Virus record (IMG/VR): IMGVR_UViG_3300030106_005643 | Coordinates: 1 to 34,103 of that record | Origin: a virus | Length of the DNA stretch: 34,103 nucleotides | Strand: one strand, 5' to 3' | Shown here: positions 543 through 30,426 of the stretch, one piece after another | Position numbering within the stretch: position 1 is the stretch's first letter | Layout: each line of letters opens with the position of its first letter | Position numbers and translations under genes: made by a program | The notes under the pieces: generated by a model | The model's database searches: none | What the model was told of the DNA's origin: nothing | Seen by the model: only the letters and a program-made list of their open reading frames with translations

Positions 543-739
543 TGTTTTAATCTATGTATAACACCTAACTTCTCTTCATTTTGAGCAATAGTATCAACAA
601 GTTTATCAGCCTCTTCAATGTGTTGTGGGTGTTCGCCAATCCCTACTGATTTAGTAAGGTATATATCTAAAGTTGCCTCAGCACTACTTATATTTGCGTG
701 ATACTTATCCTCTAATGCTTTTAATATTTTAAGTTTCAT
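539..739 (-). CDS. Small unknown protein (66 aa)
   Basis: A 66-residue acidic, probably alpha-helical protein without recognisable motif. Its stop overlaps the ATG of the downstream gene by 4 nt and its own ATG overlaps the upstream stop by 4 nt, as expected in a coupled phage operon. Composition (K/E/L/A-rich, no TM segment) suggests a soluble cytoplasmic protein. I do not recognise a family. Confidence 0.55.
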   Translation of the reverse strand: MKLKILKALEDKYHANISSAEATLDIYLTKSVGIGEHPQHIEEADKLVDTIAQNEEKLGVIHRLKQ

Positions 740-1792: not shown

Positions 1793-2350
1793 TTAAATCC
1801 AATCAAGTTCAGGTAAACCATTATAGTTTACATCGTAAACAAACCAACCAAAGGCCATGAGACCACCTGCTAATTTGTTTGTTCCTGGTTTTCTGAAGGG
1901 CACTCGTCTAGTAAAAATCCAAACTTTTCTAAGTTTTTTTTGGTTAAATATACACTCTCTTCTAGTTACACCTTCTAAATAAGATATCTTATTAAGGATA
2001 ACTACTTTATTTCTAGCCCTTTTCAAAGCATGAACAGTAAAAGCAGTAGATAAAATAAACGGTGGGTTTGTTATAATATTATCATAAACTTTATCGCTTT
2101 TTAAAAAGTCTTCAGGAGTATTGCCGTAACCTCTGTCAATCAAATCAGAACTATATACCTCATAGCCATTTTCAATCATAACCTTAGACATGGCACCGTC
2201 ACCGCAAGCACATTCCCAAATATTACCTTTAAATTTTTCTCTGTCTAATAATGCCTGTGTTGCTTCTTTAGGGGTAGGATAGAAATCGTCTTTTTCTCTG
2301 TCGTAGTTAACATTAAAACCTACATATCTTAATGCACTTTCTTTTTTCAT
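1793..2350 (-). CDS. SAM-dependent N6-adenine-type methyltransferase (185 aa)
   Basis: Class I methyltransferase with, in order: YPTP (residues 24-27), a SAM-binding loop ECACGDGAMS around 46-55, an acidic residue ending the next strand (SSDLID), and the catalytic NPPF at 95-98. N-P-P-F is typical of adenine or glutamine amino methylation and, in phages, of DNA adenine methylation. At 185 aa there is little room for a separate target-recognition domain. Phage proteins of this compact type are usually annotated as DNA N-6-adenine methyltransferases. The ATG overlaps the upstream stop by 1 nt. A role in masking phage DNA from host restriction is a guess. Confidence 0.75.
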   Translation of the reverse strand: MKKESALRYVGFNVNYDREKDDFYPTPKEATQALLDREKFKGNIWECACGDGAMSKVMIENGYEVYSSDLIDRGYGNTPEDFLKSDKVYDNIITNPPFILSTAFTVHALKRARNKVVILNKISYLEGVTRRECIFNQKKLRKVWIFTRRVPFRKPGTNKLAGGLMAFGWFVYDVNYNGLPELDWI

Positions 2351-4557: not shown

Positions 4558-4805
4558 ATAATTCCTAGTTCTCTTAGTTCTTGCGGTGGCCGTTGTACGG
4601 TGCACATTGGACAGTCAACTCTAATCTTTTCTGATTCGCTTGTGTCTTTCCAAACCCAGACCTCTCTTAAATCTTTACATCTTAAACATTGGTGTTCAGG
4701 TTTAGGTATATATTTTTCTTTTTCCATTTCTTCCTTAGCTTCTCTAAATATTTTTAACATAGCTCGATAAGCTCCTCCACATCTATATTCTTCTTTATCG
4801 TTCAT
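4554..4805 (-). CDS. Zinc-ribbon-like small protein (83 aa)
   Basis: Two CxxC pairs about 25 residues apart (CLRC near residue 40 and CPMC near 65) would bind one zinc ion in a zinc-ribbon fold. The N-terminal half is helical and charged (YRAMLKIFREAKEEMEKEK). The ATG at 4805 overlaps the stop of the methyltransferase by 4 nt, so the two are cotranscribed. DNA binding or partner binding with the methyltransferase is possible but speculative. The gene is convergent with the plus-strand group. Confidence 0.6.
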   Translation of the reverse strand: MNDKEEYRCGGAYRAMLKIFREAKEEMEKEKYIPKPEHQCLRCKDLREVWVWKDTSESEKIRVDCPMCTVQRPPQELRELGII

Positions 4806-5500
4806 TGCAATCTTTCTTTCGCAATATTAAAATATTTTTCGTCTAATTCAATACCAATAAACTCTCTATTTAAGTTTTTAGCTGCGACTCCAGTAGAACC
4901 AACTCCCATAGTAAAATCTAAAACAGTATCGTTTTCGTCTGTATAAGTTTTTATTAAGTATTCTAATAAAGCTACTGGTTTTTGTGTTGGGTGTAGTTTT
5001 TCTTTATCAGAATTAAACTCAATTAAATTCAATGGATAACGATAACCATTATTATCTGTAATTATTATTTCTTTAGAATTCGGATTATAAGTTTGTGCAG
5101 TTTTACCTTGTTTTATTTTATATGGTTTTCCTTTAGTAAATTGAGGATAATATTTTGCTTGTTTATTATAAAAACAAGATATTATTTCTGTATTTCTTAA
5201 AGGTTGTTTTTTTGCGTTTAAATATCCAGTTGAATATTTTTTTTTCCAAATCCAATCGTATTTAAAGTTTTTAATATTGCTCATTCTTAAAGCACTACTA
5301 AATGGCTCACTACCAAACAAAGCTATACAACCATTATCTTTAATAATTCTTTTTAACTCTTTCCACATTGACTCAAATGGAATTACACTATCCCACTTGC
5401 ATTGTGTTGTTCCATAAGGAGGGTCTGTCAGTATTAAGTCAACACTATTATTAGCTAATGTAGGTAATACTTTTAAACAATCATCGTTTATGAGTTTCAT
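4802..5500 (-). CDS. DNA methyltransferase, beta-class amino-MTase (N6-adenine or N4-cytosine), 232 aa
   Basis: The order is catalytic motif first: TDPPYG (D26-P-P-Y-G30), then the linker region, HPTQKP (170-175), and the SAM-binding motif DFTMGVGSTGVAA (about 195-207) followed by GIELDEKYF. Catalytic motif before SAM motif with HPTQKP defines the beta group of amino-methyltransferases. The usual D-P-F-x-G-S-G-T is here D-F-T-M-G-V-G-S-T, a mild variant. Length is typical for a solitary phage enzyme, and no restriction endonuclease gene is adjacent. Target sequence cannot be read from this. It likely methylates phage DNA against host restriction (inference). Confidence 0.9.
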   Translation of the reverse strand: MKLINDDCLKVLPTLANNSVDLILTDPPYGTTQCKWDSVIPFESMWKELKRIIKDNGCIALFGSEPFSSALRMSNIKNFKYDWIWKKKYSTGYLNAKKQPLRNTEIISCFYNKQAKYYPQFTKGKPYKIKQGKTAQTYNPNSKEIIITDNNGYRYPLNLIEFNSDKEKLHPTQKPVALLEYLIKTYTDENDTVLDFTMGVGSTGVAAKNLNREFIGIELDEKYFNIAKERLQ

Positions 5501-6370: not shown

Positions 6371-6826
6371 TCACTTTTGAAAAAGTAACTTACAAGCCCC
6401 AACAGCAACTAATTTCTCCTCATCGCACTTTTCTCCATAATGCCATAATGAAGATTTAAACAATATTAATTTATTTTTTTCAGGTTTTACTTTTCCGTAA
6501 TCTCTAAAAACAGTGTGTCCGCTATCCAATGTATTTAAATAAAGTATAAAAGAATAGTCTTCGGTTCTCTCATGATTATGAGTTTCTTGATAGCCTTCTT
6601 TTTCATAGCTGAGCACATGTATATGAAAAATGTCAAAAGGTTTAGGTAATATATTTTCAAATATTTTTTTAAAATGTCTACTGCCACTATAGTGTAAAAT
6701 GTTTTCGCTCTGAAAACCATTTACCGTGCATAATCCCGAGACACCTTTTTCATTATCTTTAAATTGCTTACAAACTTTAATTAATTCATTAGTCAAGTCT
6801 TCTTGAATAAAGGTTGTATAAATCAT
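6371..6826 (-). CDS. Cupin/2OG-oxygenase-like DSBH protein (151 aa)
   Basis: Residues 78-98 hold GYQETHNHERTEDYSFILYL with H83-x-H85 and E89, matching the metal-binding first cupin/DSBH motif. The second motif lies at about 114-131 (KPEKNKLILFKSSLWHYGE), with H129 as third ligand. Putative 2OG-Fe(II) oxygenases with HxH have the same layout. A positively charged residue near the C-terminus for 2OG binding is not obvious (K147 or K151 at best), so a non-2OG cupin is possible. The ATG overlaps the DNA polymerase stop by 4 nt, making it the last gene of the replication operon. Confidence 0.65.
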   Translation of the reverse strand: MIYTTFIQEDLTNELIKVCKQFKDNEKGVSGLCTVNGFQSENILHYSGSRHFKKIFENILPKPFDIFHIHVLSYEKEGYQETHNHERTEDYSFILYLNTLDSGHTVFRDYGKVKPEKNKLILFKSSLWHYGEKCDEEKLVAVGACKLLFQK

Positions 6827-8694
6827 TGTTCTTTAGCTTGGCCCCAACTCTTTCCTAAAGCCACATCAACTTTAAAAGGCACTTTAAGATTTTCTATACA
6901 GTTTTCCATTTTGTTTTTAATTAATTTAATGTCTTTATCTTCCCCAATACTAAAACAAAGTTCATCATGTATTTGTAATAAAGGCATATGACCTGCTTTG
7001 TAACAGTCTATCATTGCTTGTTTAGCTTGGTCTGCAGCTGAACCTTGAATTAATCTATTTAAGGCTTTGTAAGTAAAAGCTCTTCTTATGTTATTGCCAT
7101 AGTTTGCTTTAGCTTCATTATAGTTCATAGCTTGGTTCATACCAAAAGTAGCAGGCTCCCATTTATCAAACCTACATTTTCTACCTCTTATTGTTCTAAT
7201 AAAACCAAATTTACTTGCGGATTGAGTTACAGCACCAGCTAATTTTTTTACAAAAGGTACTCTTGAATTATATTTATTTAAAAGTATTTCTGCTTTATCT
7301 TTTGAGATACCTAGTTCTTTAGAAAGTTTTGCTTTACCCATACCATAAAATAATCCTAAATTAATTGTCTTAGCTTGTGTTCTTGATATGTCAGCCATAT
7401 CAGCTACAATTTGATGAAAGTCCGCAGACTCATCTTCATAAGCTTGAATAAATTCATCTGAGCCGTCTAACTTTTCTCCAATAGACGCAGAGTAGTGTGC
7501 CACTAATCTTGGCTCTTGTTGAGAGTAATCAAAAGAACCCCATTGTCTTCCATCCTCAGGTAAGAATAAACTTCTAATTTTGTTTCCAAATTCTTTATTT
7601 CTCGCAGGTATTTGCTGAAGGTTTGGATTAGAATAAGATAGTCTTCCTGAAACTGTACCTCCTTGGTCAGACCTAAGTTGATTTATTTCAGCGTGTATCC
7701 TACCTTTATGAACATATCTTTGTATCGAATCAATAAAGGTCGAGTGAAACTTATTTATTTCTCTTGCTTCTCTTACTAATGATGCAATTGGGTGCTCACA
7801 ATTTTGAAGCCAATTAGTTGTAAATGAAGGCTCATTAGATTTTGCGGTTCTAGGATATTCAACACCTAATCTATCAAACACTTGTGCAACGCTTCTGGCG
7901 GCCCATATATCAACATCAATAGTAGTTTCTTTTTTTATTTTTTGTAATACCTCTTTTTCTTTTGTTCTAAATTCTTTTTTCAATATTGAAGCCTTAGCCT
8001 CATCTACTCTAATACCTCGCTGTCTCATTTTAATTAATATTGGGAGAAGTTCCATTTCCATTTCCCAAACATCATTAATAGATTGTTTTTGTATTTCACC
8101 TTTAAATCTTTGCCATAACTTTAATGTGAGTGCCGCGTCCTGTTCAGCGTAGAAGCCAACATAGCCCGCAGGCATTTTCCATAAATCTTGTTTAGGGTCT
8201 ATACCCCACTCTTTAGCTTTTTCATTTAAAAATGTTTCATTTTTTATTTCACCTAAATAATCTTTTGCACAAGCGTTTAAAGAAAAACTATATCTGTTTT
8301 CATCAATTAATGCGGCAGTGGTCATAGTATCTACAATTTTACCATTAACCTCAAATCCATTTGATAAAAGCCAACCAACATCATACGAAGCGTTGTGAAA
8401 AATTTTTGTACTTGGTCTTTTTAATAAATCAACCATATAAGCAGTTGTTATTGCTAAGTCCATGTTGCCACCCGCATCATGTTGTATGGGAAAATACCAC
8501 TGCTGACCGAGTGCGGCCACAGCAAATCCTACAATACCGCCATCAAAAGTTGCCCAACCGGAACCTTTAGTTTTTAAATTAACATCCTTAGTTTCTAAAT
8601 CTATTGCTACCTCATCTGCCGCTCTTAAATCAGGATACTCTGACGGAGCTACCCAATCTGTATCATTATAAATAAAATTTAATTGATGACTCAT
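6823..8694 (-). CDS. polA: DNA polymerase I, family A, with 3'-5' exonuclease domain (623 aa)
   Basis: Replicative phage polymerase. The N-terminal DnaQ-like proofreading domain has all three motifs: D32-L-E34 (ExoI), N101-ASY-D105 (ExoII) and Y182-AEQ-D186 (ExoIII). Polymerase motifs follow: motif A DYSQQEPRL (389-397), motif B RTQAKTINLGLFYG (438-451) with K442 and Y450, and motif C QIHDEL (574-579) with D577. There is no 5'-3' exonuclease domain, as usual for phage polymerases. The residue equivalent to E. coli Phe762 is Leu446. Marine virus surveys have linked Leu762 polymerases with slower or temperate replication. It lies between two oxygenase genes with 4-nt overlaps. Confidence 0.97.
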   Translation of the reverse strand: MSHQLNFIYNDTDWVAPSEYPDLRAADEVAIDLETKDVNLKTKGSGWATFDGGIVGFAVAALGQQWYFPIQHDAGGNMDLAITTAYMVDLLKRPSTKIFHNASYDVGWLLSNGFEVNGKIVDTMTTAALIDENRYSFSLNACAKDYLGEIKNETFLNEKAKEWGIDPKQDLWKMPAGYVGFYAEQDAALTLKLWQRFKGEIQKQSINDVWEMEMELLPILIKMRQRGIRVDEAKASILKKEFRTKEKEVLQKIKKETTIDVDIWAARSVAQVFDRLGVEYPRTAKSNEPSFTTNWLQNCEHPIASLVREAREINKFHSTFIDSIQRYVHKGRIHAEINQLRSDQGGTVSGRLSYSNPNLQQIPARNKEFGNKIRSLFLPEDGRQWGSFDYSQQEPRLVAHYSASIGEKLDGSDEFIQAYEDESADFHQIVADMADISRTQAKTINLGLFYGMGKAKLSKELGISKDKAEILLNKYNSRVPFVKKLAGAVTQSASKFGFIRTIRGRKCRFDKWEPATFGMNQAMNYNEAKANYGNNIRRAFTYKALNRLIQGSAADQAKQAMIDCYKAGHMPLLQIHDELCFSIGEDKDIKLIKNKMENCIENLKVPFKVDVALGKSWGQAKEQ

Positions 8695-9320
8695 TCTTTA
8701 AGTTTACCTTTAGTAAACACATTGCCCGAAACTGTTATTCTAAAACCATCAGAGGTATAAAAAGGGTTAACAGAATGCATTTGTTGACTGGGAAAGATAA
8801 ACATCTTACCCTCATAAGATTTACCTACACCAATATTTAAAGCGTCAACCTTAGTGCCATTAAAATAAATAAAATTAAAGTTGCCATTAGACGGATTTTT
8901 TGCCATTGCGGCCGCTGGTAAAGCATATTCTTTTTCTAAATCAAAAGGGATTTGTACAAAAATTACAAATGATAATATTCCAAAATGACTATGTGGAGGA
9001 TTATACTCTCCTTTTTTCATCCAATTACACCATAATTCATCTAAATAAACAAAATTAGATTGATTGTCTTGCGGTAGTCTTTCAATAAAATCAAAATAAA
9101 TCTTCTTACAAAATTCAGAATTTTGAATTAAATTACCTATGTATTCATGTATTTCAGGAATAAATTGACTTAAATCAAATGCTTGTTCGTGAAAACCTAC
9201 TAAAAACTTATTGTGTGGTATGACTTTATGATTAACAAATTTTTTTATTCTATCAAACACTTCTTGTGGAAGAGTATGTTGTTCAGCTATTTCTATACCG
9301 TTAGTTCCGTGTATTATCAT
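8691..9320 (-). CDS. 2OG-Fe(II) oxygenase-like protein, TIGR02466 type (209 aa)
   Basis: The family signature is clear: LWCNWMKKGEYNPPHSH (residues 96-112) with H110-x-H112, an insertion typical of phage members, then MFIFPSQQMHSVNPF with distal H182, and R194 (GFRITVSGN) as probable 2-oxoglutarate-binding residue. The nearest relative in the window is the 24367-24951 gene (YNPPH-x-H, IFP, H, R all shared). It is embedded between DUF3310 and DNA polymerase genes with 4-nt overlaps, so it is expressed with the replication machinery. Its substrate is unknown. Confidence 0.85.
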   Translation of the reverse strand: MIIHGTNGIEIAEQHTLPQEVFDRIKKFVNHKVIPHNKFLVGFHEQAFDLSQFIPEIHEYIGNLIQNSEFCKKIYFDFIERLPQDNQSNFVYLDELWCNWMKKGEYNPPHSHFGILSFVIFVQIPFDLEKEYALPAAAMAKNPSNGNFNFIYFNGTKVDALNIGVGKSYEGKMFIFPSQQMHSVNPFYTSDGFRITVSGNVFTKGKLKE

Positions 9321-20978: not shown

Positions 20979-21433
20979 TATACTTCTTTCTCCATTTGAA
21001 TATGTCTAGCTTTCCAACCCCATTTTTTTGAAACTCTTGACCAACCTGGTCTGACCCAAAAACTTAATTTTTTACATCCATTAAGTTTAGCAAACTTAGT
21101 GACAGTATTCACTAGCTTGTCCTCCCAAAGGTGTCTCTTTCTACCTGTACAAATAATAGCCTCTAATTGAGAGTAATTAGGAAGAGCAGCTATTCTAGTT
21201 ACAAAAAGACCAAATACCTGATTCAGTTCTTCTTCGTCACTTCCAAATACTAAAAACATTTGTGCCTCGTCTTTTTTTAGTAGATCTTTAATATCTCTAC
21301 TCTCTGCAAAACCTCCAGAATATTTTAGAGCTTCAGCTATCATGAAATCACATAAAGGCCAAAACTTCTCAATATACTTTGGCTCTACTGATAAAACAGA
21401 AATGTCAGGTTTAATTGGCTTTGGCTTTTGCAT
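20978..21433 (-). CDS. GNAT-like protein resembling T7 gp13 internal virion protein (151 aa)
   Basis: The layout fits a GNAT acetyltransferase fold: helix (FWPLCDFMIAEALKYSGG), strand (AQMFLVFGSD), strand pair (QVFGLFVTRIAALPN), SQLEAIICTGRKRHLWED in place of the acetyl-CoA loop, helix (NTVTKFAKLNGCKKLSFW) and RPGWSRVSKKWGWKA. T7 gp13 and its relatives have this degenerate GNAT fold and assist virion assembly. The usual Q/RxxGxG/A acetyl-CoA loop is weak (CTGRKRH), so catalysis is doubtful. The ATG overlaps the 387-aa gene by 23 nt. Confidence 0.65.
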   Translation of the reverse strand: MQKPKPIKPDISVLSVEPKYIEKFWPLCDFMIAEALKYSGGFAESRDIKDLLKKDEAQMFLVFGSDEEELNQVFGLFVTRIAALPNYSQLEAIICTGRKRHLWEDKLVNTVTKFAKLNGCKKLSFWVRPGWSRVSKKWGWKARHIQMEKEV

Positions 21434-22574
21434 CTCTACTTCCTTTTAATAAATCAAAGACTCTCTTATATCGTCTTTGTTGTTCATAGAAGTATTGTGC
21501 ACCTTTTGCTCTCATATCTTTCATACTATTGGGGTTACCGCCCGCTATGATACCAGCACCTAATACTCCATCTGCTCTTGTTACAAACTCTCCGTCTGCT
21601 AATTGAGCTAACATTGTATCCTCGTCTTTATCTCCCGTACCTGACCCGTCTTCAACATAACCTTTTGCTCTTACATAATTATTCATGTCGTTTTCGTCAT
21701 GAGTTACTTTACTTGGTAAATAATTTATACCACCTTCGTTAAATTTTTTTATATCAGCTAAACCACCTTCATTAAATCTATTATAAGCTAATTCATAAGG
21801 ACCCATTGTAAAATCAGGATCTCTATCTGCTTCAGGTATAAATGGTTGTTCAAATGTTTTTTCTTCACCAGATTGAGGATCTATATATTTAAACCCACCT
21901 CTTCTTTTTTGTAATTCTGCTACAGCTAGATTGTAAGTTGGAGTATAAACATCAACAGGTTTTGGATCAAAAGCACCTGAGCCTAATGCCGTCAAAGCAA
22001 CGGCAGAAGCTACTTTACCTGGACTGAATTCCATAACAGGTGTTTTACCATCAGGCATAGTTACAACTCTCTGTATGCCCGTTTCCTTGTCTGTCATAAC
22101 TTTTGGTCTTCTAAATAATTTATCAAAAATACTTCTTACGCCCCCTGTGTCTTGAGTCGTGTTAACAACATTTGCCGTGTTTGCTCCTTTAGCAATTGCT
22201 GAAGTTTGTGCAGCAGTTTGCGGTACAAAAAATGAATTACTTAAAGCAGCTTGGTCTACACTTGGTAAAGCTGAAGTCACTGCCGTATTAGTTATTTGTG
22301 GTGTAAATTTAGGTATCCCTAAACTTGGAAATGTTTGACCTAAAGATTGGATAGGACCTAATTGTGTAAATGAGGGTAAAAAATTTGCAGATTGCACATT
22401 ACCAAAACCTGCAGCGCTTACTCCTGGCACCAACTTACCACCTTGATATCCTAGAAAGGCTCCTGTGCCTGTTGCTAGTAATCTTTGTAATGGTGAACCG
22501 CCCGCATCTTTTGAAGCACGATATCCTTTGTAACCTCCATAAGCAGCAAGAGCGTAGGGTAAAAATTGTAACAT
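21411..22574 (-). CDS. Virion protein with FNEGG motif and C-terminal 'DGEFV' domain (387 aa)
   Basis: The N-terminus (residues 1-60) is Gly/Ala-rich and hydrophobic, with small-residue spacing (AAYGGYKGYRA, GAFLGYQGGK) suggestive of membrane insertion. Residues 267-283 carry FNEGGLADIKKFNEGGI. The C-terminus has DTMLAQLADGEFVTRADGV followed by KGAQYFYEQQRRYKRVF, a domain common at the end of phage ejection and structural proteins. First gene of the ejection operon. Upstream AAGGAATACATAATAT offers a distant ribosome-binding site and a 12-bp palindrome lies just beyond. Confidence 0.65.
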   Translation of the reverse strand: MLQFLPYALAAYGGYKGYRASKDAGGSPLQRLLATGTGAFLGYQGGKLVPGVSAAGFGNVQSANFLPSFTQLGPIQSLGQTFPSLGIPKFTPQITNTAVTSALPSVDQAALSNSFFVPQTAAQTSAIAKGANTANVVNTTQDTGGVRSIFDKLFRRPKVMTDKETGIQRVVTMPDGKTPVMEFSPGKVASAVALTALGSGAFDPKPVDVYTPTYNLAVAELQKRRGGFKYIDPQSGEEKTFEQPFIPEADRDPDFTMGPYELAYNRFNEGGLADIKKFNEGGINYLPSKVTHDENDMNNYVRAKGYVEDGSGTGDKDEDTMLAQLADGEFVTRADGVLGAGIIAGGNPNSMKDMRAKGAQYFYEQQRRYKRVFDLLKGSRDAKAKAN

Positions 22575-22620: not shown

Positions 22621-23448
22621 TTACTCAGTCTTTATCAACTCATCGGCAAAACACCCTCTATACTGGTGTTCGCCTACATGTGTAATTCGGTCAGTTATAA
22701 GAGCATAACACTTTTCTCCAAGTGCTTTCCATCTTTTACAAAAGGCAAAGTCTTCTCCTAAAAAGTTTTTTGTTTCAGGGTCAAACATAGTATCAAAAAA
22801 GTTGTAAAAATGAGGTCTATTTATATACTCTCCATTAATAACAGTCTTTTGAACAATCTCCATTTCAGGATAAGCTTTAATCATTTTTTCAATAACTTCT
22901 CTTTTGATTAACATACATCCTGTAGGAGAGTGGGTTACTTCTATAACACCATCTTTAACTCTTATATCTCTTTCGTTAGAAACTTTCATTGGATATGTAT
23001 GTAAGGCTTTGAATTTTAAATCTTTAACATTTTTAATATCACCTTTATTTAATCTATCCCAAGCTTTATCCCACATAAGTTGTTTAAGTGGATATGGGAC
23101 AGAGATTACTCCTTTATCTGCAGCTATCATTTTCATAATAGATTGATTTTGAAACTCTATATCTGAATCAATAAATAATAAGTGTGTATGATTACTCTCC
23201 ATAAAACTTGATACACAAAGATTACGACCCTGTGTTACTAAACTTGATTTCATGACTTGAAAAGAAGCCACAATATCATTTTTCATACAGAACTTTTGAA
23301 AGTCTAAACATGCTTGAAAGTAATGTATAGAGACTTCACTATGCACAGGTGTTGCTACAAAGATAGAAAATTTTTTAGGTTTTAGTTCTTGTGTTTTAAC
23401 TTTATCAGTTTTATCATTAAACCAAATTGGTTTACTTGGGTCTTGCAT
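22621..23448 (-). CDS. GT-A-fold glycosyltransferase (275 aa)
   Basis: The N-terminal Rossmann-like start is FSIFVATPVHSEVSI, followed by QGRNLCVSSFMES and the metal/sugar-nucleotide-binding DxD at LLFIDSDIEF (D94-S-D96). Later conserved-looking stretches are THSPTGCMLIKREVIEKM and NFLGEDFAFCKRW, with E-D as the usual catalytic-region acidic pair. This layout fits inverting or retaining GT-A enzymes of the Anp1/GT2-like kind. No membrane segment. The start overlaps the GT-B gene by 17 nt. Acceptor unknown: virion protein, modified DNA base or host surface are all possible. Confidence 0.8.
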   Translation of the reverse strand: MQDPSKPIWFNDKTDKVKTQELKPKKFSIFVATPVHSEVSIHYFQACLDFQKFCMKNDIVASFQVMKSSLVTQGRNLCVSSFMESNHTHLLFIDSDIEFQNQSIMKMIAADKGVISVPYPLKQLMWDKAWDRLNKGDIKNVKDLKFKALHTYPMKVSNERDIRVKDGVIEVTHSPTGCMLIKREVIEKMIKAYPEMEIVQKTVINGEYINRPHFYNFFDTMFDPETKNFLGEDFAFCKRWKALGEKCYALITDRITHVGEHQYRGCFADELIKTE

Positions 23449-24367
23449 ATGTCAGTGCTCCTTGTAAAAAAGTAGTCCATTGTTTTCCTATTATCTTCCA
23501 ATTGTAAAAATGGTTATAAAAATTTTGTTGAAATTTTAAATGATTTTGTAGTCCTACAGTATTGATTTGTTGTGGCAACTCATCAATCACACCTGCAAAC
23601 TGTTTTGCTAAATTATTCCAATTATTATCCATGGGCACATAAATAGGAAACTCTGAACAAGTTTCATAAAGCGCTCCGTTGTCCGTTGTTGTTACATACA
23701 AACCACACGCTAAAGCTTCTAGAGCCGATATACAAAAGGACTCCTCCCAAATGTTAGGATAAACAAATGCATCGTAAGTATGTAAGTTATCTAATATATA
23801 ATCATTACTTTTGTAACCAACATAATTTACATTAGGTAATTGTTTAGCTTGATTATATAAAGCTTCGTATTGTTTATCGTTCTGTTTCTCAAAATCAGAT
23901 CCATAAATTTTGGTGCTACTATATACATCTAAGGTTATGTTAGAGCTTTTAATTAATTGCATGGCACCTAAAAGAATAGATAAACCTCTCCAAGGTGTAG
24001 GGTGATAAATTAATCTAATTTTATCTTTCTTTATCATTGGATCTCTTTTTTTAATATCACCTATACCGTTTTTTATAACTGTACATTTATCACAAGGTAA
24101 ATCAAATTTTTTTCTAAATTGTTCGTAATTCCAATGACTGTTAAAAACATAATAGTCATATTTAGCAATCTCTTCTTTCTTTGAAAAAAATTCTTGTAGT
24201 TGAGGTTGGTCAGGAGCCATTTTTTGCCAAAGAATATTTATCTTTGTATTTGATAAAGGTACTCTCCCAGGCACAGATAGACAAATTTGAAACTTTTCTA
24301 ATAAGTCTACAGGCACATTTTTTTGTAAAAATTGATATTGTAATTCTGTTCCGCCTAATGGTTCCAT
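23432..24367 (-). CDS. GT-B-fold glycosyltransferase, GT4-like (311 aa)
   Basis: It begins with EPLGGTELQ, where the GGTE loop is typical of the GT4 N-terminal domain. It continues with YVFNSHWNYEQFRKKF, CTVIKNGIG, IRLIYHPTPWRGLSILLGA (nucleotide-sugar site start) and the E-x7-E signature EESFCISALEALACGLYVTT. The N-terminal domain is shorter than in most GT4 enzymes (total 311 aa), so the fold may be trimmed. It overlaps both neighbours (oxygenase upstream by 1 nt, GT-A downstream), so all three are probably made together. Confidence 0.85.
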   Translation of the reverse strand: MEPLGGTELQYQFLQKNVPVDLLEKFQICLSVPGRVPLSNTKINILWQKMAPDQPQLQEFFSKKEEIAKYDYYVFNSHWNYEQFRKKFDLPCDKCTVIKNGIGDIKKRDPMIKKDKIRLIYHPTPWRGLSILLGAMQLIKSSNITLDVYSSTKIYGSDFEKQNDKQYEALYNQAKQLPNVNYVGYKSNDYILDNLHTYDAFVYPNIWEESFCISALEALACGLYVTTTDNGALYETCSEFPIYVPMDNNWNNLAKQFAGVIDELPQQINTVGLQNHLKFQQNFYNHFYNWKIIGKQWTTFLQGALTYARPK

Positions 24368-24951
24368 TATTTTTCTTTTTTAAAGTTTGCTGCTATTGAT
24401 ACCCTTTCTACACTTGATTTAAAAGGAGAAACTACATGTCTGAGGTGTGCGGGAAATATAAAAAAATCACCTGCGACAGGCATAAAATATTTGTCAGTGA
24501 TTAAACCTTTGCCGTGTTCACCATATATAAACATAATTGATCCTGGTCCACCTTCATAACCATTTACACCTTTACTTTGTTTAGCCTCTTCATGAATTTC
24601 TTGAGGCACTGATAGATATAAAACAGAAGAGTAATCGCAACTAACATGTATATGAGGTGGATTGTAGTCACCTGCTTTCATGTAATTAACCCAAGCCTTA
24701 TCACAAACTAATCTGTTAGGTTTCTTACCATACCAAGTTTCGTGTGCTTTAATAAATCCTCCAAAATATTTTTCTATTATTTGTGTATATGCAGGAGTAT
24801 CAATATGATATTCAGTTTTAAAATGGCCTACTAATTTATGTTCAAAATTTTTCTTTTCATCTTTAATACAAAGCTCAGATAAAGATTTTAAATCTTCTTC
24901 GTTAACTTTTGTATGATAAAGAAGAGGACCCCAAAAATAAACTTTGCCCAT
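24367..24951 (-). CDS. 2OG-Fe(II) oxygenase-like protein, TIGR02466 type (194 aa)
   Basis: Signature residues: AWVNYMKAGDYNPPHIH (H100-x-H102), an insertion, DFFIFPAHLRHVVSPF (distal H172) and ERVSIAANF (R183 for 2-oxoglutarate). It shares the YNPPHxH, IFP and terminal R pattern with the 8691-9320 protein, so the two are paralogues in different modules. It starts at TAATG after the 59-aa gene and its stop touches the GT-B start, placing it in one operon with two glycosyltransferases. Hydroxylation followed by glycosylation is an attractive but untested link. Confidence 0.85.
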   Translation of the reverse strand: MGKVYFWGPLLYHTKVNEEDLKSLSELCIKDEKKNFEHKLVGHFKTEYHIDTPAYTQIIEKYFGGFIKAHETWYGKKPNRLVCDKAWVNYMKAGDYNPPHIHVSCDYSSVLYLSVPQEIHEEAKQSKGVNGYEGGPGSIMFIYGEHGKGLITDKYFMPVAGDFFIFPAHLRHVVSPFKSSVERVSIAANFKKEK

Positions 24952-25130
24952 TAGTTTTTATTAGTTTTGCTAAATATTGGTAAGTCAGGAACTTGAACTT
25001 CTATGTCAGTGGCTAAATCTTCTTTAGGATGTTCTGCGAGAAATGCTTTTTCACTTTCGTATCTTTCACCAGTTTTTATACTTCTGTAGATAGTTTTTGT
25101 TTCACACTTAACTTTTTGATAAACAGTCAT
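24951..25130 (-). CDS. Small unknown protein (59 aa)
   Basis: ATG at 25130, stop TAA at 24951 joined to the next ATG as TAATG. The protein is charged and soluble (VYQKVKCETKTIYRSIKTGE, then EKAFLAEHPKEDLATD). No motif recognised. It bridges the structural genes upstream and the oxygenase/glycosyltransferase genes downstream, so all belong to one transcription unit. Confidence 0.6.
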   Translation of the reverse strand: MTVYQKVKCETKTIYRSIKTGERYESEKAFLAEHPKEDLATDIEVQVPDLPIFSKTNKN

Positions 25131-25149: not shown

Positions 25150-25284
25150 TTAACGCCCCTGTCCACGACTCTTCTTACGATAAGGAACTCTTTTACTATA
25201 ACTTTTTGCGTGCCTACCAGGACGCTTTTTTGGAGTTCGCTTAATATAATTACTAACACCAAATAAAGGTTTTCGTTTACCCAT
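25150..25284 (-). CDS. Very basic small protein (44 aa)
   Basis: ATG at 25284, inside the end of the upstream gene, stop at 25150. About 18 of 44 residues are Lys or Arg (NYIKRTPKKRPGRHAKSYSK, RVPYRKKSRGQGR), with Gly, Pro and Ser and no acidic residue. Similar tiny basic proteins recur in marine phages beside structural genes. Condensing packaged DNA or binding RNA is possible; function is unknown. Confidence 0.6.
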   Translation of the reverse strand: MGKRKPLFGVSNYIKRTPKKRPGRHAKSYSKRVPYRKKSRGQGR

Positions 25285-25627
25285 TTTCTTGAGATCTATC
25301 TATAAGAGCATAACTTATAGCTCCTTGTATTTTATTACTACCTGAGGCGGCTGTAACGGTAATTGAGTCTCCTGCTTCGAGATTTATACCCTGAGGTGTT
25401 GCATTTACTTGTGTTTTCGCTGCAACATCATCCCTAAAAAATTCATACTCAGCATTAGAATCAGAGGAGTCAACTAAATTCATATTAACTAAAATTGCAG
25501 ACGAGGCATCATTATTTGCAACATAAACACTTTTTATTATTATTGTTCCATTAGTCGGGCAAGTAAGGACTGTAGTTTTACCCGTGCTAGCTTGTTTATA
25601 TCCTTGGTTTTTATATTGTATTGTCAT
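25277..25627 (-). CDS. Small beta-rich structural protein (116 aa)
   Basis: The strand-dominated sequence (TTVLTCPTNGTIIIKSVYVAN, SAILVNMNLVD, GINLEAGDSITVTAASGSN) resembles a beta-sandwich typical of phage neck, decoration or tail-attached proteins. The C-terminus ends IQGAISYALIDRSQ, a pattern common in such proteins. It lies between the 727-aa tail protein/54-aa gene and the basic protein, with short overlaps. Structural role inferred from fold pattern and place. Confidence 0.6.
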   Translation of the reverse strand: MTIQYKNQGYKQASTGKTTVLTCPTNGTIIIKSVYVANNDASSAILVNMNLVDSSDSNAEYEFFRDDVAAKTQVNATPQGINLEAGDSITVTAASGSNKIQGAISYALIDRSQENG

Positions 25628-25791
25628 TATGATAAGAAATAGTTAAAGGCATCAGCGTCATTTTTTATATCAGTCTGGTATGAAAAGTTCAACTGCTGTT
25701 GGAGTGTTCTGACAGCTTGTAAAATTTGTCTTTGATCTTCTGCTGAGTATTGTTGTTTTGGTTCAGGTAATACAATTGTAATTCTAGCCAT
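25627..25791 (-). CDS. Small conserved structural-module protein (54 aa)
   Basis: ATG at 25791 overlapping the end of the 727-aa gene by 1 nt, stop at 25627. The sequence MARITIVLPEPKQQYSAEDQ, then QILQAVRTLQQQLNFSY and NDADAFNYFLS, is a type found next to tail genes in many uncultured marine phages. It has a strand-like start, a central helix and an aromatic end. Possibly a tail accessory or chaperone; function unknown. Confidence 0.65.
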   Translation of the reverse strand: MARITIVLPEPKQQYSAEDQRQILQAVRTLQQQLNFSYQTDIKNDADAFNYFLS

Positions 25792-27974
25792 TATCTTCTC
25801 CCGTCTGGTCTTACATCAAATCTAAATGTTCCATATCTCCAGCTCTCATTTAAATTTTCATTTTCTATTTGAACCGCTGCAAGTCTTGCTCTTGCTCGTG
25901 TGTCTATCTTTGTAGTAGTTGAAGATACCGTGAAAGGACCTAGAGGACTTGAGGCTTGTGTGCTACCTTGTGGAAAGGCATTTAAAAAAATTGTTACTTT
26001 TGCATTACCAGCAATTCTCTTAAAGTCAGGCATAAACCTTTTTACACTCATTATAAATTCACCGTCTCCAGGAACTCCTTGTCTTCCGTTCAAATCAAAT
26101 TCACCTGATTTAATAAACGCGGCAATAGCTGTTTCAGTTCCGTCTCCGTTTAATTGGTTTACACCTTTTTCATGTTCATAATAAATTGTAGCTCCATTAG
26201 AAACACCATTAACCACAGGAAAGGTTGGAGTATCTGAAGCGTTAAAATCAGTAGCATATGGTTGCTCGTAAACTGTTGAGCCAACCCAAGTTGTTCTATC
26301 TAATGTGCCTGTGGTCCAAACACCCTCAGCGAAATTGTAAGTAACCACTCTGTTTATTGCATTTGAATCTGCAGTAGCGTAAAACCAATTTATCTCAGAG
26401 TATAGTTCGTTTATTCCTGCATAAACTAATTGACCTGAATTATAATTTATACCAGGATTATTGCCATTAGTTGTAAACACGAAGTCCTCAACTAGACATG
26501 GTAATGATTTTACTGTTCCATCATACACATAAAATCCACCTGTTCTCCCCATCCAATACACAGCACCATTTGCAAACACACCTGCATGCTGTCCTAACAT
26601 ACCATTATTAGAACCAACTTTTAATATTGAGAAAGTAAAAGGTGGTCCTACAAACTGTATTACATAAGAGGCAGTATCAGTTAAAACAAATATATAATCC
26701 TTTCCTTTAAACGCTCCTATGATTTGAGTTCCATCATCTAGCCTGAAAGTTCCTGCAGTGTTTGTTGAAGTGGGTTCGTAAGTGCTTAAACTTTCTTGAT
26801 TAGAAAATCTGATAAACATTTTATCCTGCGTGGTAGCTGAACCAATAGTAGTCTCTGTGCCTAAATGAAATAAATGCCTATCCCTATCTGAAACTATTGT
26901 CATTACAGATTTTGTAGGCATTCCTGTTCCAACAGTGGCCCTTGTTTGCAGTTGATTTGATGCATTAGCGTCCCAAGTAAAAGTTTTCCCATTATGGACT
27001 GTTGCAACTAATATATTTCCAAAATTATCTAATGACCAATTAGCAGGATCTATTGATACTCCTGCTGCTGTAGAGGCATCACCCCAACCAATAAATTCTG
27101 TGATGTCAGTCACAGTTGCCCCGTTATTGTGCTCTGCTGCTGTCGTTCCGTTAATACCTCTAGTAATCCCACTGATCGTGTTTGTCCCTGTGGTGTTAGT
27201 TGTGTAGCTCATGTCTTCAGAACCAATTCTTAATTTACCGTTAGTTAGAGGTAGGTTTGCTGTGCTTGTTAGAACCACTGAAGATGCACCAACAAGCATA
27301 TTACCACCATTGTTAATTGTTGTTGTGGTTTGTGCTATTGTTCGACCACCAAATAAGTAAGTGCCCCAACCATAGCCATAAGTTTGATTAAGTGGACCTA
27401 CGGGTGCATAAGGATTTACATCTAAAGTTCCATCATTTGTAACGCCTGACTTAGACTCAGTGGAAGGCATCGTAATAGTGAAAGTTGTAATTGTTGGGAC
27501 GCTTTGAACTTCGAATAGTTTGTTATCGAAATCAGTCGCGGTAAAAACTGTGTTTGCACCTGTAAATGAGCCTGCGTTTGCAAAGGTAGTTATTTCGCCT
27601 ACCTCTAAATTGTGAGCAGAGGTCGTTGTAATTGTAACTGTTGCTGATCCGTTGGTCGTTGTTATGTCTGCGCCTGTAGAGAAATTATCAGTTTCTAAGG
27701 GTGTTATATCGTAAAATGCACCCTCATAATAAATAATTAACACCTTATCAGTGCCAATGGCTGCGTATCTTTTTCCGTTTGTAGCTGACCAAACATGTTG
27801 AGCCCGGGCAGCGCCTACTAATTTATTATCTACTAATGCTTGCCAACCACCTATTTTTTCAGGTTCTCCATATCTAAATCTTACATTGTCACCATCAACC
27901 CATCTTCCTTCTGCGTCTGAAGGTGTAGATTGTTTATCAAACCCTGGTGCTATAATAACTTTTGATAAAGGCAT
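25791..27974 (-). CDS. Large tail protein, P22 gp10-like stabilisation/tail-hub type (727 aa)
   Basis: The N-terminus PLSKVIIAPGFDKQSTPSDA followed by RWVDGDNVRFRYGEPEKIGG is the signature of a widespread phage structural protein related to the P22 packaged-DNA stabilisation (gp10) family. The body is beta-rich with repeated aromatic/Gly strands (GRTGGFYVYDGTVKSLP, FAEGVWTTGTLDRTTWVGS), as in a beta-propeller. Region 105-170 is Thr/Val-rich and Ig-like, perhaps an inserted domain. A consensus extended -10 box ends 5 nt before the ATG at 27974. Confidence 0.75.
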   Translation of the reverse strand: MPLSKVIIAPGFDKQSTPSDAEGRWVDGDNVRFRYGEPEKIGGWQALVDNKLVGAARAQHVWSATNGKRYAAIGTDKVLIIYYEGAFYDITPLETDNFSTGADITTTNGSATVTITTTSAHNLEVGEITTFANAGSFTGANTVFTATDFDNKLFEVQSVPTITTFTITMPSTESKSGVTNDGTLDVNPYAPVGPLNQTYGYGWGTYLFGGRTIAQTTTTINNGGNMLVGASSVVLTSTANLPLTNGKLRIGSEDMSYTTNTTGTNTISGITRGINGTTAAEHNNGATVTDITEFIGWGDASTAAGVSIDPANWSLDNFGNILVATVHNGKTFTWDANASNQLQTRATVGTGMPTKSVMTIVSDRDRHLFHLGTETTIGSATTQDKMFIRFSNQESLSTYEPTSTNTAGTFRLDDGTQIIGAFKGKDYIFVLTDTASYVIQFVGPPFTFSILKVGSNNGMLGQHAGVFANGAVYWMGRTGGFYVYDGTVKSLPCLVEDFVFTTNGNNPGINYNSGQLVYAGINELYSEINWFYATADSNAINRVVTYNFAEGVWTTGTLDRTTWVGSTVYEQPYATDFNASDTPTFPVVNGVSNGATIYYEHEKGVNQLNGDGTETAIAAFIKSGEFDLNGRQGVPGDGEFIMSVKRFMPDFKRIAGNAKVTIFLNAFPQGSTQASSPLGPFTVSSTTTKIDTRARARLAAVQIENENLNESWRYGTFRFDVRPDGRR

Positions 27975-28001: not shown

Positions 28002-28643
28002 TTATGTAGTCTTGGGTACACCAAGTAAAGGGCGACCATCATTAGATTGAGAGCCATATTGACCGTATGCATCAGCATAATGTAAAAAAACTTGTGTGCA
28101 TATATCACCAGTAAACTTTTCTCTCCAATGTTCTAAATCAACACCATTGTAAACTAACATGTCCCCTTGCTCTAAATTAATAGATATTCCTTTATTATCA
28201 CTAGTAACCGTAGCTCCTTGTTTTCCAGGTTGCCCAACATTTTTGTTTGGCTCTAAATAAATTGGCCACACATCTCCACCTAAATTTAAGGTAGTGGATA
28301 TTTGACAACTTACTCTGTCTTTATGTCTTTCGAGCACAGAGCCTTTTTTATATATTCTAGTGTAAGAATAATTCATTACTAGTTTCATTTCCGTTTCTCT
28401 TTCCATTAATGGATGTAATTTTTTAAGTAATGTTTCCATAGCGAAGTCAGAATAATGAGAATACATATTAGGCACTTGATCGTCTTTCCAAGTTCCTAAC
28501 CAGCCAACCTCAGGGCTTATGCCTTTGCTGTACATATATTTAACAGCATCACATTTTAGATTTAAGTAGTTAAATAAAAATTCTGCCATCTCATTAGAAA
28601 TAGCACCTTTAATAACTTTATATCTATTCTTTTGAAAACTCAT
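28002..28643 (-). CDS. 2OG-Fe(II) oxygenase-like protein (213 aa)
   Basis: Core motif YSYTRIYKKGSVLERHKDRV with H107-x-D109, then CQISTTLNLGGDVWPIYLEP, INLEQGDMLVYNGVDLEHW with distal H172, and QVFLHYADA. H-x-D...H is the standard Fe(II) triad. The 2OG-binding Arg is not in its usual place; the FLHYAD strand has none. The protein type is common in cyanophages and pelagiphages. It has a close but degenerate relative three genes upstream (29342-29875). Overlap with the next gene is 4 nt. Confidence 0.85.
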   Translation of the reverse strand: MSFQKNRYKVIKGAISNEMAEFLFNYLNLKCDAVKYMYSKGISPEVGWLGTWKDDQVPNMYSHYSDFAMETLLKKLHPLMERETEMKLVMNYSYTRIYKKGSVLERHKDRVSCQISTTLNLGGDVWPIYLEPNKNVGQPGKQGATVTSDNKGISINLEQGDMLVYNGVDLEHWREKFTGDICTQVFLHYADAYGQYGSQSNDGRPLLGVPKTT

Positions 28644-29146
28644 CTAATAAACCCGTTAATAGTTAATCTACTATCGTTAATATCATTACCATGATGTCCA
28701 TAAGCACTATGTTTATAGGTGCTATCAAATAAGATTAATCGATTTTGCACAAATTTAAAATCAGTGATTGTATTGTTGTCTTTGCAAAATAGTTTCGTGC
28801 CACTTTTAAGATTTGTCTCACTTATATAAATAATTAAAGAATAAATGCAAGCATCTGTATGTATAAAATCGTCTTTTTCATCGCTCTGTGTTCTTGAGTG
28901 TACATATAAATGAATTTTTTTATCCTCAATGTTAAGTTTATTTAATGTAAAATATTTAACACAAAAATATTTTAATAAAGGGTTACTATGTTCCAGTTCT
29001 AAACTTCTCTCTCCTGGCCATACTGATTTGTTAATATCGTTTTGAACTTCAGGGTGATCTGAATTTTTAAATAATTTTATTTTTTTTGCTTCATTATAAA
29101 TTACCTGAGGTAATTCAAAAAAATTGTCAATTTGTTGAGCGATCAT
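28640..29146 (-). CDS. 2OG-Fe(II) oxygenase-like protein, DUF6445-like (168 aa)
   Basis: Triad residues H96-T-D98 (DDFIHTDACIYSLIIYI), a Gly-Thr-x-Leu-Phe strand (SGTKLFCKDNN), NRLILFDSTYKHSAYG with distal H146, and R160 (DSRLTINGF) for 2-oxoglutarate. All four expected residues are present. The pattern recalls DUF6445, phage and bacterial proteins predicted to be oxygenases. It is sandwiched between two other small genes with 4-nt overlaps in the oxygenase operon. Substrate unknown. Confidence 0.75.
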   Translation of the reverse strand: MIAQQIDNFFELPQVIYNEAKKIKLFKNSDHPEVQNDINKSVWPGERSLELEHSNPLLKYFCVKYFTLNKLNIEDKKIHLYVHSRTQSDEKDDFIHTDACIYSLIIYISETNLKSGTKLFCKDNNTITDFKFVQNRLILFDSTYKHSAYGHHGNDINDSRLTINGFIR

Positions 29147-29352
29147 TTTAATTCTTGCTCATCGTCAGATTTTAAATGTTGTCTAGTGCTAGGATTGTAT
29201 TGATCTAATTCTACATACATCCTAATTAAATGATTACCCATATGTTTCATTCCATCAGCAGAAATCTTAGTGCAACCTTTAAATAAAATTCTAAGTCTTT
29301 CTCTCCATGAAAAACTTATTTCGCAATGATTTTTTTGATTTTTAATAATCAC
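29143..29352 (-). CDS. Small unknown protein within the oxygenase operon (69 aa)
   Basis: N-terminal strand and basic helix (HCEISFSWRERLRILFKG), then a helix (DGMKHMGNHLIRMYVELDQY) and a charged tail. Short proteins with 'SFxWRERxRIxFxG' starts occur in marine phages and cyanobacteria without known function. It overlaps both neighbours by short stretches, so it is translated with the oxygenases and could be an accessory partner. That is speculative. Confidence 0.55.
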   Translation of the reverse strand: MIIKNQKNHCEISFSWRERLRILFKGCTKISADGMKHMGNHLIRMYVELDQYNPSTRQHLKSDDEQELK

Positions 29353-29875
29353 CTACTACTCCATATGTTTCTTTTTTATCTTTTAGATAAAATTTGTTAG
29401 CTCCTTTAGCATCTACATAGTGTAGATTATACTCAAAGTAATAATCACCTTCAAATTCTTTTCTATAAAAATGCTCTTTATAATCATCAAATAATAAAGC
29501 GTGAGAGGGCTCTAAGTCAAATTTTTGTCCTCTTAAATATAATGGCCATGGTTTACCAACCATATCAATTAAACCAATTACAGTATATTCACAAGCAGGT
29601 GATCTTTCATGATATTCATACTCAGCACCTAAAGTATGAACTTTAAGTTCTGAATAAGAACAATATAATTGTTTACCTAAAGTTTTTTCAATACTTGATT
29701 TTTTACTAATCATTAAACTATCTGTGAGTGAGTCAGCATAAAGTCTTGTGTCTTTCGTGGAGCTTTTAGGGTCAAAAAATTTTAAATTATTTCTATGTCG
29801 AATTTTAGTATAATGAGTAAATAATTCTAACTCGTGGTTAGTTAAAAAATTAGGTATTTTTACTAAAGTCCCCAT
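29342..29875 (-). CDS. Degenerate 2OG-oxygenase-like paralogue, metal motif H-E-R (177 aa)
   Basis: Aligning by eye with the 28002 protein: YSELKVHTLGAEYEYHERS against YSYTRIYKKGSVLERHKDR, VGKPWPLYLRG against GGDVWPIYLEP, and DDYKEHFYRKEF against GVDLEHWREKF, ending YNLHYVDA against FLHYADA. The distal His (H135) is kept, but the H-x-D motif reads H89-E90-R91, so the second Fe ligand is missing from its usual position. It may be inactive, use E90, or serve as a regulatory or structural subunit. It overlaps the P4H-like gene by 13 nt. Confidence 0.7.
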   Translation of the reverse strand: MGTLVKIPNFLTNHELELFTHYTKIRHRNNLKFFDPKSSTKDTRLYADSLTDSLMISKKSSIEKTLGKQLYCSYSELKVHTLGAEYEYHERSPACEYTVIGLIDMVGKPWPLYLRGQKFDLEPSHALLFDDYKEHFYRKEFEGDYYFEYNLHYVDAKGANKFYLKDKKETYGVVGDY

Positions 29876-30426
29876 GCTACAATACTATATCTAGTACCCT
29901 CCTCAACAGGCGTTACCGTATGTGGATATAAAAAATTACTTGGCCATACAATTAATCTAGATGATTTAACATTAACAACTTTTTGTTCTTCGGTTAGTGG
30001 ATCTCTAAAACATAAATTTCCACCTTTATAATCATTATTAAGTAATAATATAAAACTCAAAGTTCTTGGGTGTTTATAATAATGGTCTGTATGAAATTTG
30101 TAAAAACCGCCTTTTTCATACTTTAAAGCTTGTATGTCCTTAATAGAGTAAATAAAAGATTCATTTGTATTGAAGTATTTCATATACTCAAGGTGTGCGT
30201 TATAAAAGATTTTATTAAGTAAATTATACCAGTGAACATTAGTTAAACTTGATGACCATCGATATAAATTAAGATTAAATGTTCTTCTAACTTCTAAATT
30301 AACTTGCTCCTCTCCAACTGTAGCTTGATTAAAATCACTTACGCTTAAAACTTTAACTAGTCTTCCTATTGTATCTATAGGTAAAACATCATCTATTGTT
30401 AGTATATATTTATCTAAACTTGTCAT
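29863..30426 (-). CDS. Prolyl-4-hydroxylase-type 2OG-Fe(II) oxygenase (187 aa)
   Basis: Complete active-site set: H112-T-D114 (GGFYKFHTDHYY), then TLSFILLLNNDYKGGNLCFRD (the classic 'YLN..Y.GG.L.F' strand), SSRLIVWPSNFLYPHTVTPV with H169, and R179 (GTRYSIVAWGL). This is the P4Hc domain, which hydroxylates prolyl or other residues using 2-oxoglutarate, O2 and Fe(II). Length is that of a stand-alone catalytic domain. Operon overlaps: 4 nt with the DUF6065-like gene and 13 nt with the degenerate paralogue. Confidence 0.9.
   Translation of the reverse strand: MTSLDKYILTIDDVLPIDTIGRLVKVLSVSDFNQATVGEEQVNLEVRRTFNLNLYRWSSSLTNVHWYNLLNKIFYNAHLEYMKYFNTNESFIYSIKDIQALKYEKGGFYKFHTDHYYKHPRTLSFILLLNNDYKGGNLCFRDPLTEEQKVVNVKSSRLIVWPSNFLYPHTVTPVEEGTRYSIVAWGL

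What the first reader, a model, noticed from the sequence alone, without database searches (positions are those of the whole stretch)
22621..24951. Glycosyltransferase pair coupled to an oxygenase inside the virion gene block
A GT-A enzyme with DSD, a GT-B (GT4-like) enzyme with E-x7-E and a TIGR02466-type oxygenase overlap each other in one operon. Hydroxylation can create a hydroxyl acceptor for sugar addition (known chemistry for hydroxylysine and for hypermodified phage bases). A phage-encoded hydroxylate-then-glycosylate cassette acting on virion protein or DNA would be a notable system.
Basis: partly seen in the sequence, partly recalled or inferred. Interest (0 to 1): 0.7.

Follow-up and report, generated by a model that had tools for sequence, protein, structure and literature searches.

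The report
Swappable oxygenases beside phage sugar-transferase pair
A marine phage that probably infects SAR11 bacteria carries a stable pair of sugar-transferring enzymes inside its virion gene block, next to a spot where oxygen-using enzymes come and go; the pair is real, its target is unknown, and the neighbouring oxygenase is not a fixed partner.

Summary
Three overlapping minus-strand genes encode a PF13759 oxygenase (24951-24367), a GT4-like GT-B enzyme (24367-23432) and a GT-A enzyme with an invariant DSD (23448-22621), in a HTVC023P-type (SAR11) podovirus fragment. The "one hydroxylate-then-glycosylate cassette" reading is only partly supported. In relatives the two glycosyltransferases are a stable pair (112 GT-bearing rows of a 142-row tree, no clear loss), whereas the oxygenase slot was gained or lost at least 19 times. 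Half of the GT-bearing loci (63 of 124) have no oxygenase between the STAB gene and the GTs, and close homologues of the window oxygenase also sit on the tail side, once in a GT-less locus. The slot is nonetheless an oxygenase hotspot: 106 of 143 non-backbone genes there are 2OG enzymes of many families, against 0 of 132 downstream of the GTs. Canonical base hydroxylation has no support (thymidylate synthase 0 of 24 records). The GT-A model is nearest to STIV A197, human LH3, COLGALT1 and mimivirus R699, largely protein or hydroxylysine glycosylation machinery. Best guess: late protein glycosylation of virion or host surface, with interchangeable oxygenases tailoring the same or neighbouring proteins. 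The acceptor remains unproven.

The parts
24367..24951 (-). PF13759 2OG-Fe(II) oxygenase-like gene, 194 aa; single HxH tripeptide H100-I-H102; interchangeable cargo of the slot
   Evidence: slot turnover
23432..24367 (-). GT-B (GT4-like) glycosyltransferase, 311 aa, E209-x7-E217 invariant in 41 of 41; AlphaFold2 pLDDT 90
22621..23448 (-). GT-A glycosyltransferase (phrog_1574), 275 aa, D94-S95-D96 and E232-D233 invariant in 39 of 39; AlphaFold2 pLDDT 87
24951..25130 (-). 59-aa conserved small protein; the slot opens between it and GT-B; its family is also found in GT-less relatives
25150..25284 (-). 44-aa Lys/Arg/Pro-rich peptide (p44), inherited with the GT pair in most lineages; no PHROG match
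25277..25627 (-). 116-aa conserved protein (P116) on the upstream side of the hotspot
25791..27974 (-). virion structural protein (phrog_3287; called STAB here), used for the phylogeny
21411..22574 (-). conserved gene downstream of GT-A (INT); 1 insert in 60 GTA-INT intervals, and that a second GT-A
28002..30426 (-). tail-side oxygenase run: 28002-28643, 28640-29146, 29342-29875, 29863-30426
8691..9320 (-). second PF13759 oxygenase, beside DNA polymerase A

Best explanation
Two things lie side by side. (1) An old, vertically kept, translationally coupled GT pair, inserted in the late virion module of one lineage of HTVC023P-type phages. It most likely acts late in infection as a two-enzyme sugar-transfer unit on a protein acceptor: a virion protein, or failing that a host surface protein. 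(2) A gene-capture hotspot just upstream, around the 44- and 59-aa small genes and in front of GT-B, that repeatedly takes up 2OG-Fe(II) oxygenases of many families, and now and then carbamoyltransferase, methyltransferase or another glycosyltransferase. Here it holds a PF13759 enzyme. The oxygenases probably tailor the same or neighbouring proteins, but they are interchangeable and not needed by the GTs. Shown: gene identity, pairing, turnover, hotspot statistics, fold neighbours. Inferred: late timing, protein acceptor, virion as target, and any order of hydroxylation and glycosylation.
For: GT-B and GT-A overlap or lie within 40 bp in 69 of 105 distinct pairs, 41-250 bp apart in 32 and more than 250 bp apart in 4. 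P116-GTB: 92 distinct intervals, 50 with inserts, 75 of 86 insert ORFs are 2OG; GTB-GTA 4 of 4; GTA-INT 0 of 1; INT-GNAT and GNAT-EJ no inserts in 45 and 42 intervals. In GT-bearing contigs 2OG are 106 of 143 ORFs in the slots, 234 of 594 on the tail side, 0 of 132 downstream of GT-A (Fisher slot against tail side p 5e-14). Representative PF13759-type inserts score over the Pfam cut-off: 10 of 10. STAB tree of 142: GT state 2 changes, slot oxygenase 23, at least 19 on starred branches. GT-A model: STIV A197 Z 17.9, LH3 Z 16.8, COLGALT1 Z 15.2, mimivirus R699 Z 15.0, Mnn9 Z 14.8; then two unnamed glycosyltransferase entries at 14.3 and 13.9, the rest 13.4 and below. In cyanophage ACG-2014f the GT-A homologue lies among tail collar and surface protein genes. 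TS 0 of 24.
Against: No acceptor, sugar or activity is shown. Fold likeness is not function: the LH3 match is to residues 294-519, which I recall as the accessory and not the catalytic GT domain. In Cr30 and DLP6 the GT-A homologue lies in the replication module beside the sliding clamp, and Cr30 GT-B lies in a heptose/UDP-sugar cluster; both fit DNA or envelope targets as well. GT-less relatives share the STAB-region virion genes, so the GTs are not needed for assembly. Bacterial GT-A homologues are lone genes without informative neighbours in most of the 7 neighbourhoods I read, of 68 found. HTVC027P genes form a mosaic of expression times, so late expression of the pair is not established.
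Confidence: 0.4

Rival explanations
1. A true hydroxylate-then-glycosylate system: slot oxygenases hydroxylate lysine, proline or another side chain on a phage protein and the GT pair glycosylates the new hydroxyl, as LH3 or mimivirus L230 does; unrelated oxygenases can supply the hydroxyl, and tail-side ones cover for empty slots.
For: 2OG hotspot next to the GTs; slot oxygenases in 61 of 124 GT-bearing against 1 of 31 GT-less loci; GT-A neighbours include LH3, COLGALT1, R699; other cargo is also group-transfer chemistry.
Against: GTs persist with empty slots; GT presence changed essentially once, so the association is confounded by lineage (0 gains in the GT-less clade, length test p 0.04-0.07; independent-pair test uninformative); 2OG genes are commoner on the tail side (383 against 106 unique).
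Confidence: 0.17
2. Host envelope modification: the GTs add sugars to SAR11 LPS, capsule or a lipid carrier, excluding competing phages; the oxygenase is unrelated.
For: The GT-B model is nearest to generic GT4 enzymes of small molecules and polysaccharides; Cr30 GT-B lies with heptose and UDP-sugar genes; proposed for pelagimyophage GTs in PMC7029224 (passages); a SAR11 single-cell genome has a GT-A homologue at 42% (L335).
Against: No membrane or lipid-carrier gene was recognised beside the pair in the window; the top structural neighbours of GT-A are mostly protein GTs; late modification by a lytic phage gives limited benefit (inference).
Confidence: 0.2
3. DNA base hypermodification: the oxygenase or another enzyme makes a hydroxylated base and the GTs decorate it.
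For: GT-A homologues lie in replication or recombination modules of Cr30, DLP6 and Manatee Spring phages; some HTVC023P-type clades carry TS and aGPT-PPlase (PMC9599517).
Against: TS 0 of 24 GT-bearing or window records (many are fragments); the window's oxygenases gave no Tet_JBP match (search 57 had no working control); SAR11 rarely has restriction systems (PMC7029224); the genes sit in the virion block.
Confidence: 0.07
4. Plain auxiliary cargo: oxygenase hotspot and GTs are neighbours only because this is where the genome tolerates insertion; no shared substrate.
For: The tail side is also oxygenase-rich in contigs without a visible GT (149 of 422); oxygenase homologues move between sites; PMC9599517 already notes 2OG genes near each other without mention of GTs.
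Against: Slot cargo is far more one-sided than tail-side cargo (74% against 39%), and sites just downstream of the GTs take none.
Confidence: 0.3

Closest known systems
HTVC023P-type pelagiphages (HTVC023P, HTVC027P; 80 genomes of Wittmers et al. 2022, PMC9599517)
   Same: Same GT pair in the same place in the two cultured phages, many 2OG genes; the paper already lists three glycosyltransferases and eight 2OG families
   Different: The passages I read treat them as separate auxiliary genes; the GT pair with its oxygenase hotspot is not described there
LH3/PLOD3, COLGALT1 and mimivirus L230/R699 (hydroxylysine glycosylation)
   Same: GT-A fold at Z 15-17; chemistry of oxygenase plus GT
   Different: Not fused, 11-14% identity, LH3 match outside the domain I recall as catalytic, no collagen-like substrate shown
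Mycobacteriophage capsid glycosylation (Maravista announcement, PMC11256854, start of abstract in a listing; the underlying work recalled)
   Same: Phage-encoded GT pair proposed to decorate the capsid
   Different: Different host and GTs; no oxygenase hotspot known to me
STIV A197 (PDB 2c0n)
   Same: Best structural match, viral GT-A, Z 17.9, 23% identity over 163 residues
   Different: Archaeal virus, no GT-B partner known to me; acceptor not read here
Cyanophage and pelagimyophage 2OG and GT genes (PMC3037559, PMC7029224, passages)
   Same: Marine phages with several 2OG genes, or with GTs near tail genes
   Different: Other gene families and arrangement
5-hydroxymethylcytosine carbamoyltransferase (PMC8670742, passages)
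   Same: Carbamoyltransferase appears as rare slot cargo here
   Different: There it sits with a TS homologue on modified contigs; here TS was not found

Membership tests
PF13759 / TIGR02466 oxygenase | PF13759 gathering score | tested here: met
   58.8 bits against 27
PF13759 / TIGR02466 oxygenase | TIGR02466 curated cut-off | tested here: not met
   47.6 against 62.5 bits
PF13759 / TIGR02466 oxygenase | 2OG-dependent hydroxylation activity | not testable with these tools
   An HxH tripeptide occurs in 148 of 148 PF13759-like proteins (tripeptide search, columns not checked); the canonical HxD is recalled
GT4 (GT-B, retaining) | GT1/GT4 C-terminal domain and E-x7-E | tested here: met
   PF00534 over cut-off; E209, E217 invariant; HepE Z 26.2
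GT-A superfamily | GT-A fold with DxD-type motif | tested here: met
Anp1 (PF03452) | gathering score | tested here: not met
   20.8 against 28.8 bits
LH3-type hydroxylysine glycosylation | fold likeness of the GT | tested here: met
   Z 16.8, rmsd 3.1, 177 residues, LH3 294-519
LH3-type hydroxylysine glycosylation | obligate neighbouring hydroxylase | tested here: not met
   slot without 2OG in 63 of 124 GT-bearing loci; tail-side oxygenases could substitute
LH3-type hydroxylysine glycosylation | hydroxylysine acceptor | not testable with these tools
   needs mass spectrometry
TS-based base hypermodification | thymidylate synthase-type base enzyme | tested here: not met
   0 of 24 records, control rings in 9 of 14 genomes; several records are fragments
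TET-based base hypermodification | Tet_JBP dioxygenase | tested here: inconclusive
   0 of 24 but no control rang
HTVC023P-type phage | homologous, collinear virion region | tested here: met
   a collinear contig lies in a SAR11 single-cell genome (L327)

The most novel reading that the evidence does not exclude
A bacterial-virus counterpart of collagen-type glycosylation: interchangeable phage oxygenases hydroxylate side chains of a small Lys/Pro-rich phage protein (the co-inherited 44-aa p44 is a candidate) or a fibre protein, and the LH3/COLGALT-like GT-A plus GT-B build a glycan on the new hydroxyl, giving each phage a different surface or packaged-protein chemistry.
Probability: 0.08. Interest if true: 0.9.

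Novelty: new variant of a known kind. Interest (0 to 1): 0.45.

Why it matters
[quoted passage not shown] A stable GT pair with a fast-turning oxygenase hotspot suggests surface or protein modification under diversifying selection, and it can be tested in two cultured phages that carry the pair without a slot oxygenase. If the new hydroxyl were the sugar acceptor it would be, to my knowledge, the first such protein glycosylation in a bacterial virus.

Tried and rejected
DNA hypermodification: TS not found in any of 24 records, several of them fragments; the Tet_JBP search had no ringing control, so it counts for little. Dedicated cassette: rejected on turnover. PDB sequence search: GT-A and GT-B without a hit at E 1 and 0.01; oxygenase with only weak matches, best 3bvc at E 0.0068. 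T4-type DNA GTs were not among the 50 rows shown for GT-B; that excludes nothing. Association test: 61 of 124 against 1 of 31 (Fisher 7e-7) is confounded, as the GT state changes only once or twice; the independent-pairs test was uninformative and the branch-length test borderline (0.04-0.07). The one GT-less locus with slot oxygenases, L310, groups with GT-bearing phages and its contig ends 2333 bases after p44.

The 2OG caller is a home-made panel of 13 iterated HMMs. Seeds S3, S4, OX3 and OX5 had no Pfam match at 0.01 and OX4 was below the cut-off; S3 plus S4 make 14 and OX4 11 of the 106 slot calls, so a strict count would be 81 of 143. Rows dropped: duplicates by identical sequence, loci with under 2500 bases after STAB, STAB rows under 350 aa, GT-B matches under 45% identity. 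The search for related loci keeps the best 80 loci per call, so prevalence among all phages is not measured.

p44 as substrate: 172 of 181 GT loci and 6 of 71 loci without a visible GT have it; five of those six end within 539 bases after p44 and L310 at 2333. The HTVC027P-like branch keeps the GTs without p44, which speaks against p44 as the general acceptor.

Literature: PMC9599517 abstract, sections 6 and 10 (part 1) and passages; PMC12753301 abstract, section 12 and passages; PMC8670742, PMC3037559, PMC7029224, PMC10504331, PMC10149686, PMC9614988 passages only; PMC11256854 start of abstract in a listing. The ten answered searches listed no paper that I recognised as describing this GT pair with its oxygenase hotspot; supplements could not be read.

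Full report
What is there. The window is a 34,103-base IMG/VR virus record. On the minus strand at 24951-22621 lie three overlapping genes: an oxygenase (194 aa), a GT-B enzyme (311 aa) and a GT-A enzyme (275 aa). Family searches give PF13759 for the first, PF00534 for the second and phrog_1574 for the third; TIGR02466 is matched below its cut-off. DSD is invariant in 39 of 39 GT-A rows and E-x7-E in 41 of 41 GT-B rows.

Whose genome it is. The closest named phages are Pelagibacter phages HTVC023P (GT-A 61%, GT-B 54% identity) and HTVC027P (47%, 55%), with the same order of virion genes. A collinear contig with the GT pair lies in a SAR11 single-cell genome (L327). The host is therefore probably a SAR11 bacterium (inference).

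The pair is stable, the oxygenase is not. In HTVC023P and HTVC027P the two GTs follow small genes directly, without an oxygenase at that place. Among 94 distinct slot sequences the backbone P116 - 44 aa - 58/59 aa - GT-B - GT-A recurs in most, with 0 to several extra genes. In 92 distinct P116-GTB intervals, 50 have inserts and 75 of 86 insert ORFs are 2OG enzymes; between GT-B and GT-A 4 of 4; in 60, 45 and 42 intervals further downstream one insert in all, a second GT-A. The inserts fall into many families, with carbamoyltransferase halves, a methyltransferase-looking and a GT9-like gene (below cut-off) among the rest. All 10 PF13759-type inserts checked pass the Pfam cut-off.

Phylogeny. 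In a tree of 142 STAB proteins the GT state needs 2 changes (one is L310, a contig that may simply end too early) and the slot oxygenase 23, at least 19 on starred branches. GT-less relatives with a homologous virion region exist: 023Pt_psg01, DSL-LC04 and CRP-901, 0 of 3 with GT-A by profile, against 2 of 2 for the HTVC phages. Slot oxygenases occur in 61 of 124 GT-bearing and 1 of 31 GT-less loci. Because the GT state changed so rarely this association is confounded by descent; the branch-length test is borderline.

Is the association special? Partly. In GT-bearing contigs 106 of 143 slot ORFs are 2OG, 234 of 594 on the tail side and 0 of 132 downstream of GT-A (slot against tail side Fisher p 5e-14; tail-side ORFs include ordinary tail genes, so the comparison is rough). 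But most oxygenases sit on the tail side (383 unique against 106), families OX, S0d, S4, S0c and OX4 occur in both places, and of 15 distinct relatives of the window oxygenase at 36% identity or more, 8 are in a GT slot, 6 on the tail side (one, L181, in a locus without GTs) and 1 elsewhere. So this oxygenase is movable cargo.

Structure. The GT-A model (pLDDT 87) is nearest to STIV A197 (Z 17.9), then LH3 residues 294-519 (16.8), COLGALT1 (15.2), mimivirus R699 (15.0) and yeast Mnn9 (14.8); the next rows are two unnamed glycosyltransferase entries at 14.3 and 13.9, and then 13.4 and below. Foldseek alone gives A197 and LH3 as leaders with low TM-scores near 0.45. The GT-B model (pLDDT 90) matches generic GT4 enzymes, HepE first at Z 26.2. 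This leans towards a protein acceptor but shows no function. Mimivirus L230 is a characterised viral hydroxylase plus GT (PMC9614988, passages).

Context elsewhere. GT-A homologues lie in the tail-fibre region of cyanophage ACG-2014f but in the replication module of Cr30 and DLP6 and near recombination genes in Manatee Spring phages. Context therefore does not settle the acceptor.

Against DNA: thymidylate synthase 0 of 24 records, control rings in 9 of 14; some HTVC023P-type clades do carry TS and aGPT-PPlase (PMC9599517), but none of the 24 records searched here showed TS.

An unexpected companion. A 44-aa Lys/Arg/Pro-rich peptide (25150-25284) sits just upstream and is found in 172 of 181 GT loci and in 6 of 71 others, which are mostly cut-off contigs. 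It is missing in the HTVC027P-like branch, which keeps the GTs. It is a candidate substrate only.

Verdict. Observation confirmed; the cassette reading partly supported. The known part is that these phages have GTs and many 2OG genes (PMC9599517). What I did not find described in my searches is the stable GT pair flanked by an oxygenase-taking hotspot, and the LH3/COLGALT-like GT-A fold.

Noticed in passing
window 28002-28643 and 29342-29875: PHROG names these 'ferrochelatase' (phrog_2954, phrog_3531), but their profiles align with 2OG families (hhalign probability 84-95%) and phrog_3531 itself also matches a 2OG protein of the window; the name, also used in PMC9599517, looks like a misannotation.
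   Followed up: partly
window 25150-25284: 44-aa Lys/Arg/Pro-rich peptide without PHROG match, inherited with the GT pair in most lineages.
   Followed up: partly
window 1-30426: About eight 2OG-type oxygenase ORFs in one 34-kb phage fragment, two of them flanking DNA polymerase A (6371-6826, 8691-9320).
   Followed up: partly
L050, L094, L105 slots: Carbamoyltransferase encoded as two adjacent genes (N- and C-terminal halves) in the same hotspot.
   Followed up: no
window 539-739; between GT-B and GT-A of about 30 loci: A 62-66 aa protein family (phrog_1811, motif SVGIGEHPQH) is found both far away in the window and between the two GTs in relatives.
   Followed up: no
HTVC027P MN698241 3484-4179: A second GT-A copy far from the virion block.
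   Followed up: no
PF13759-like proteins, e.g. window 24367-24951: All 148 examined hold an HxH tripeptide where HxD would be expected; metal ligands unclear.
   Followed up: no
window 1793-2350 and 4802-5500: An N6/N4 DNA methyltransferase (PF01555) at 4802-5500, and a methyltransferase-looking ORF at 1793-2350 without a Pfam match.
   Followed up: no
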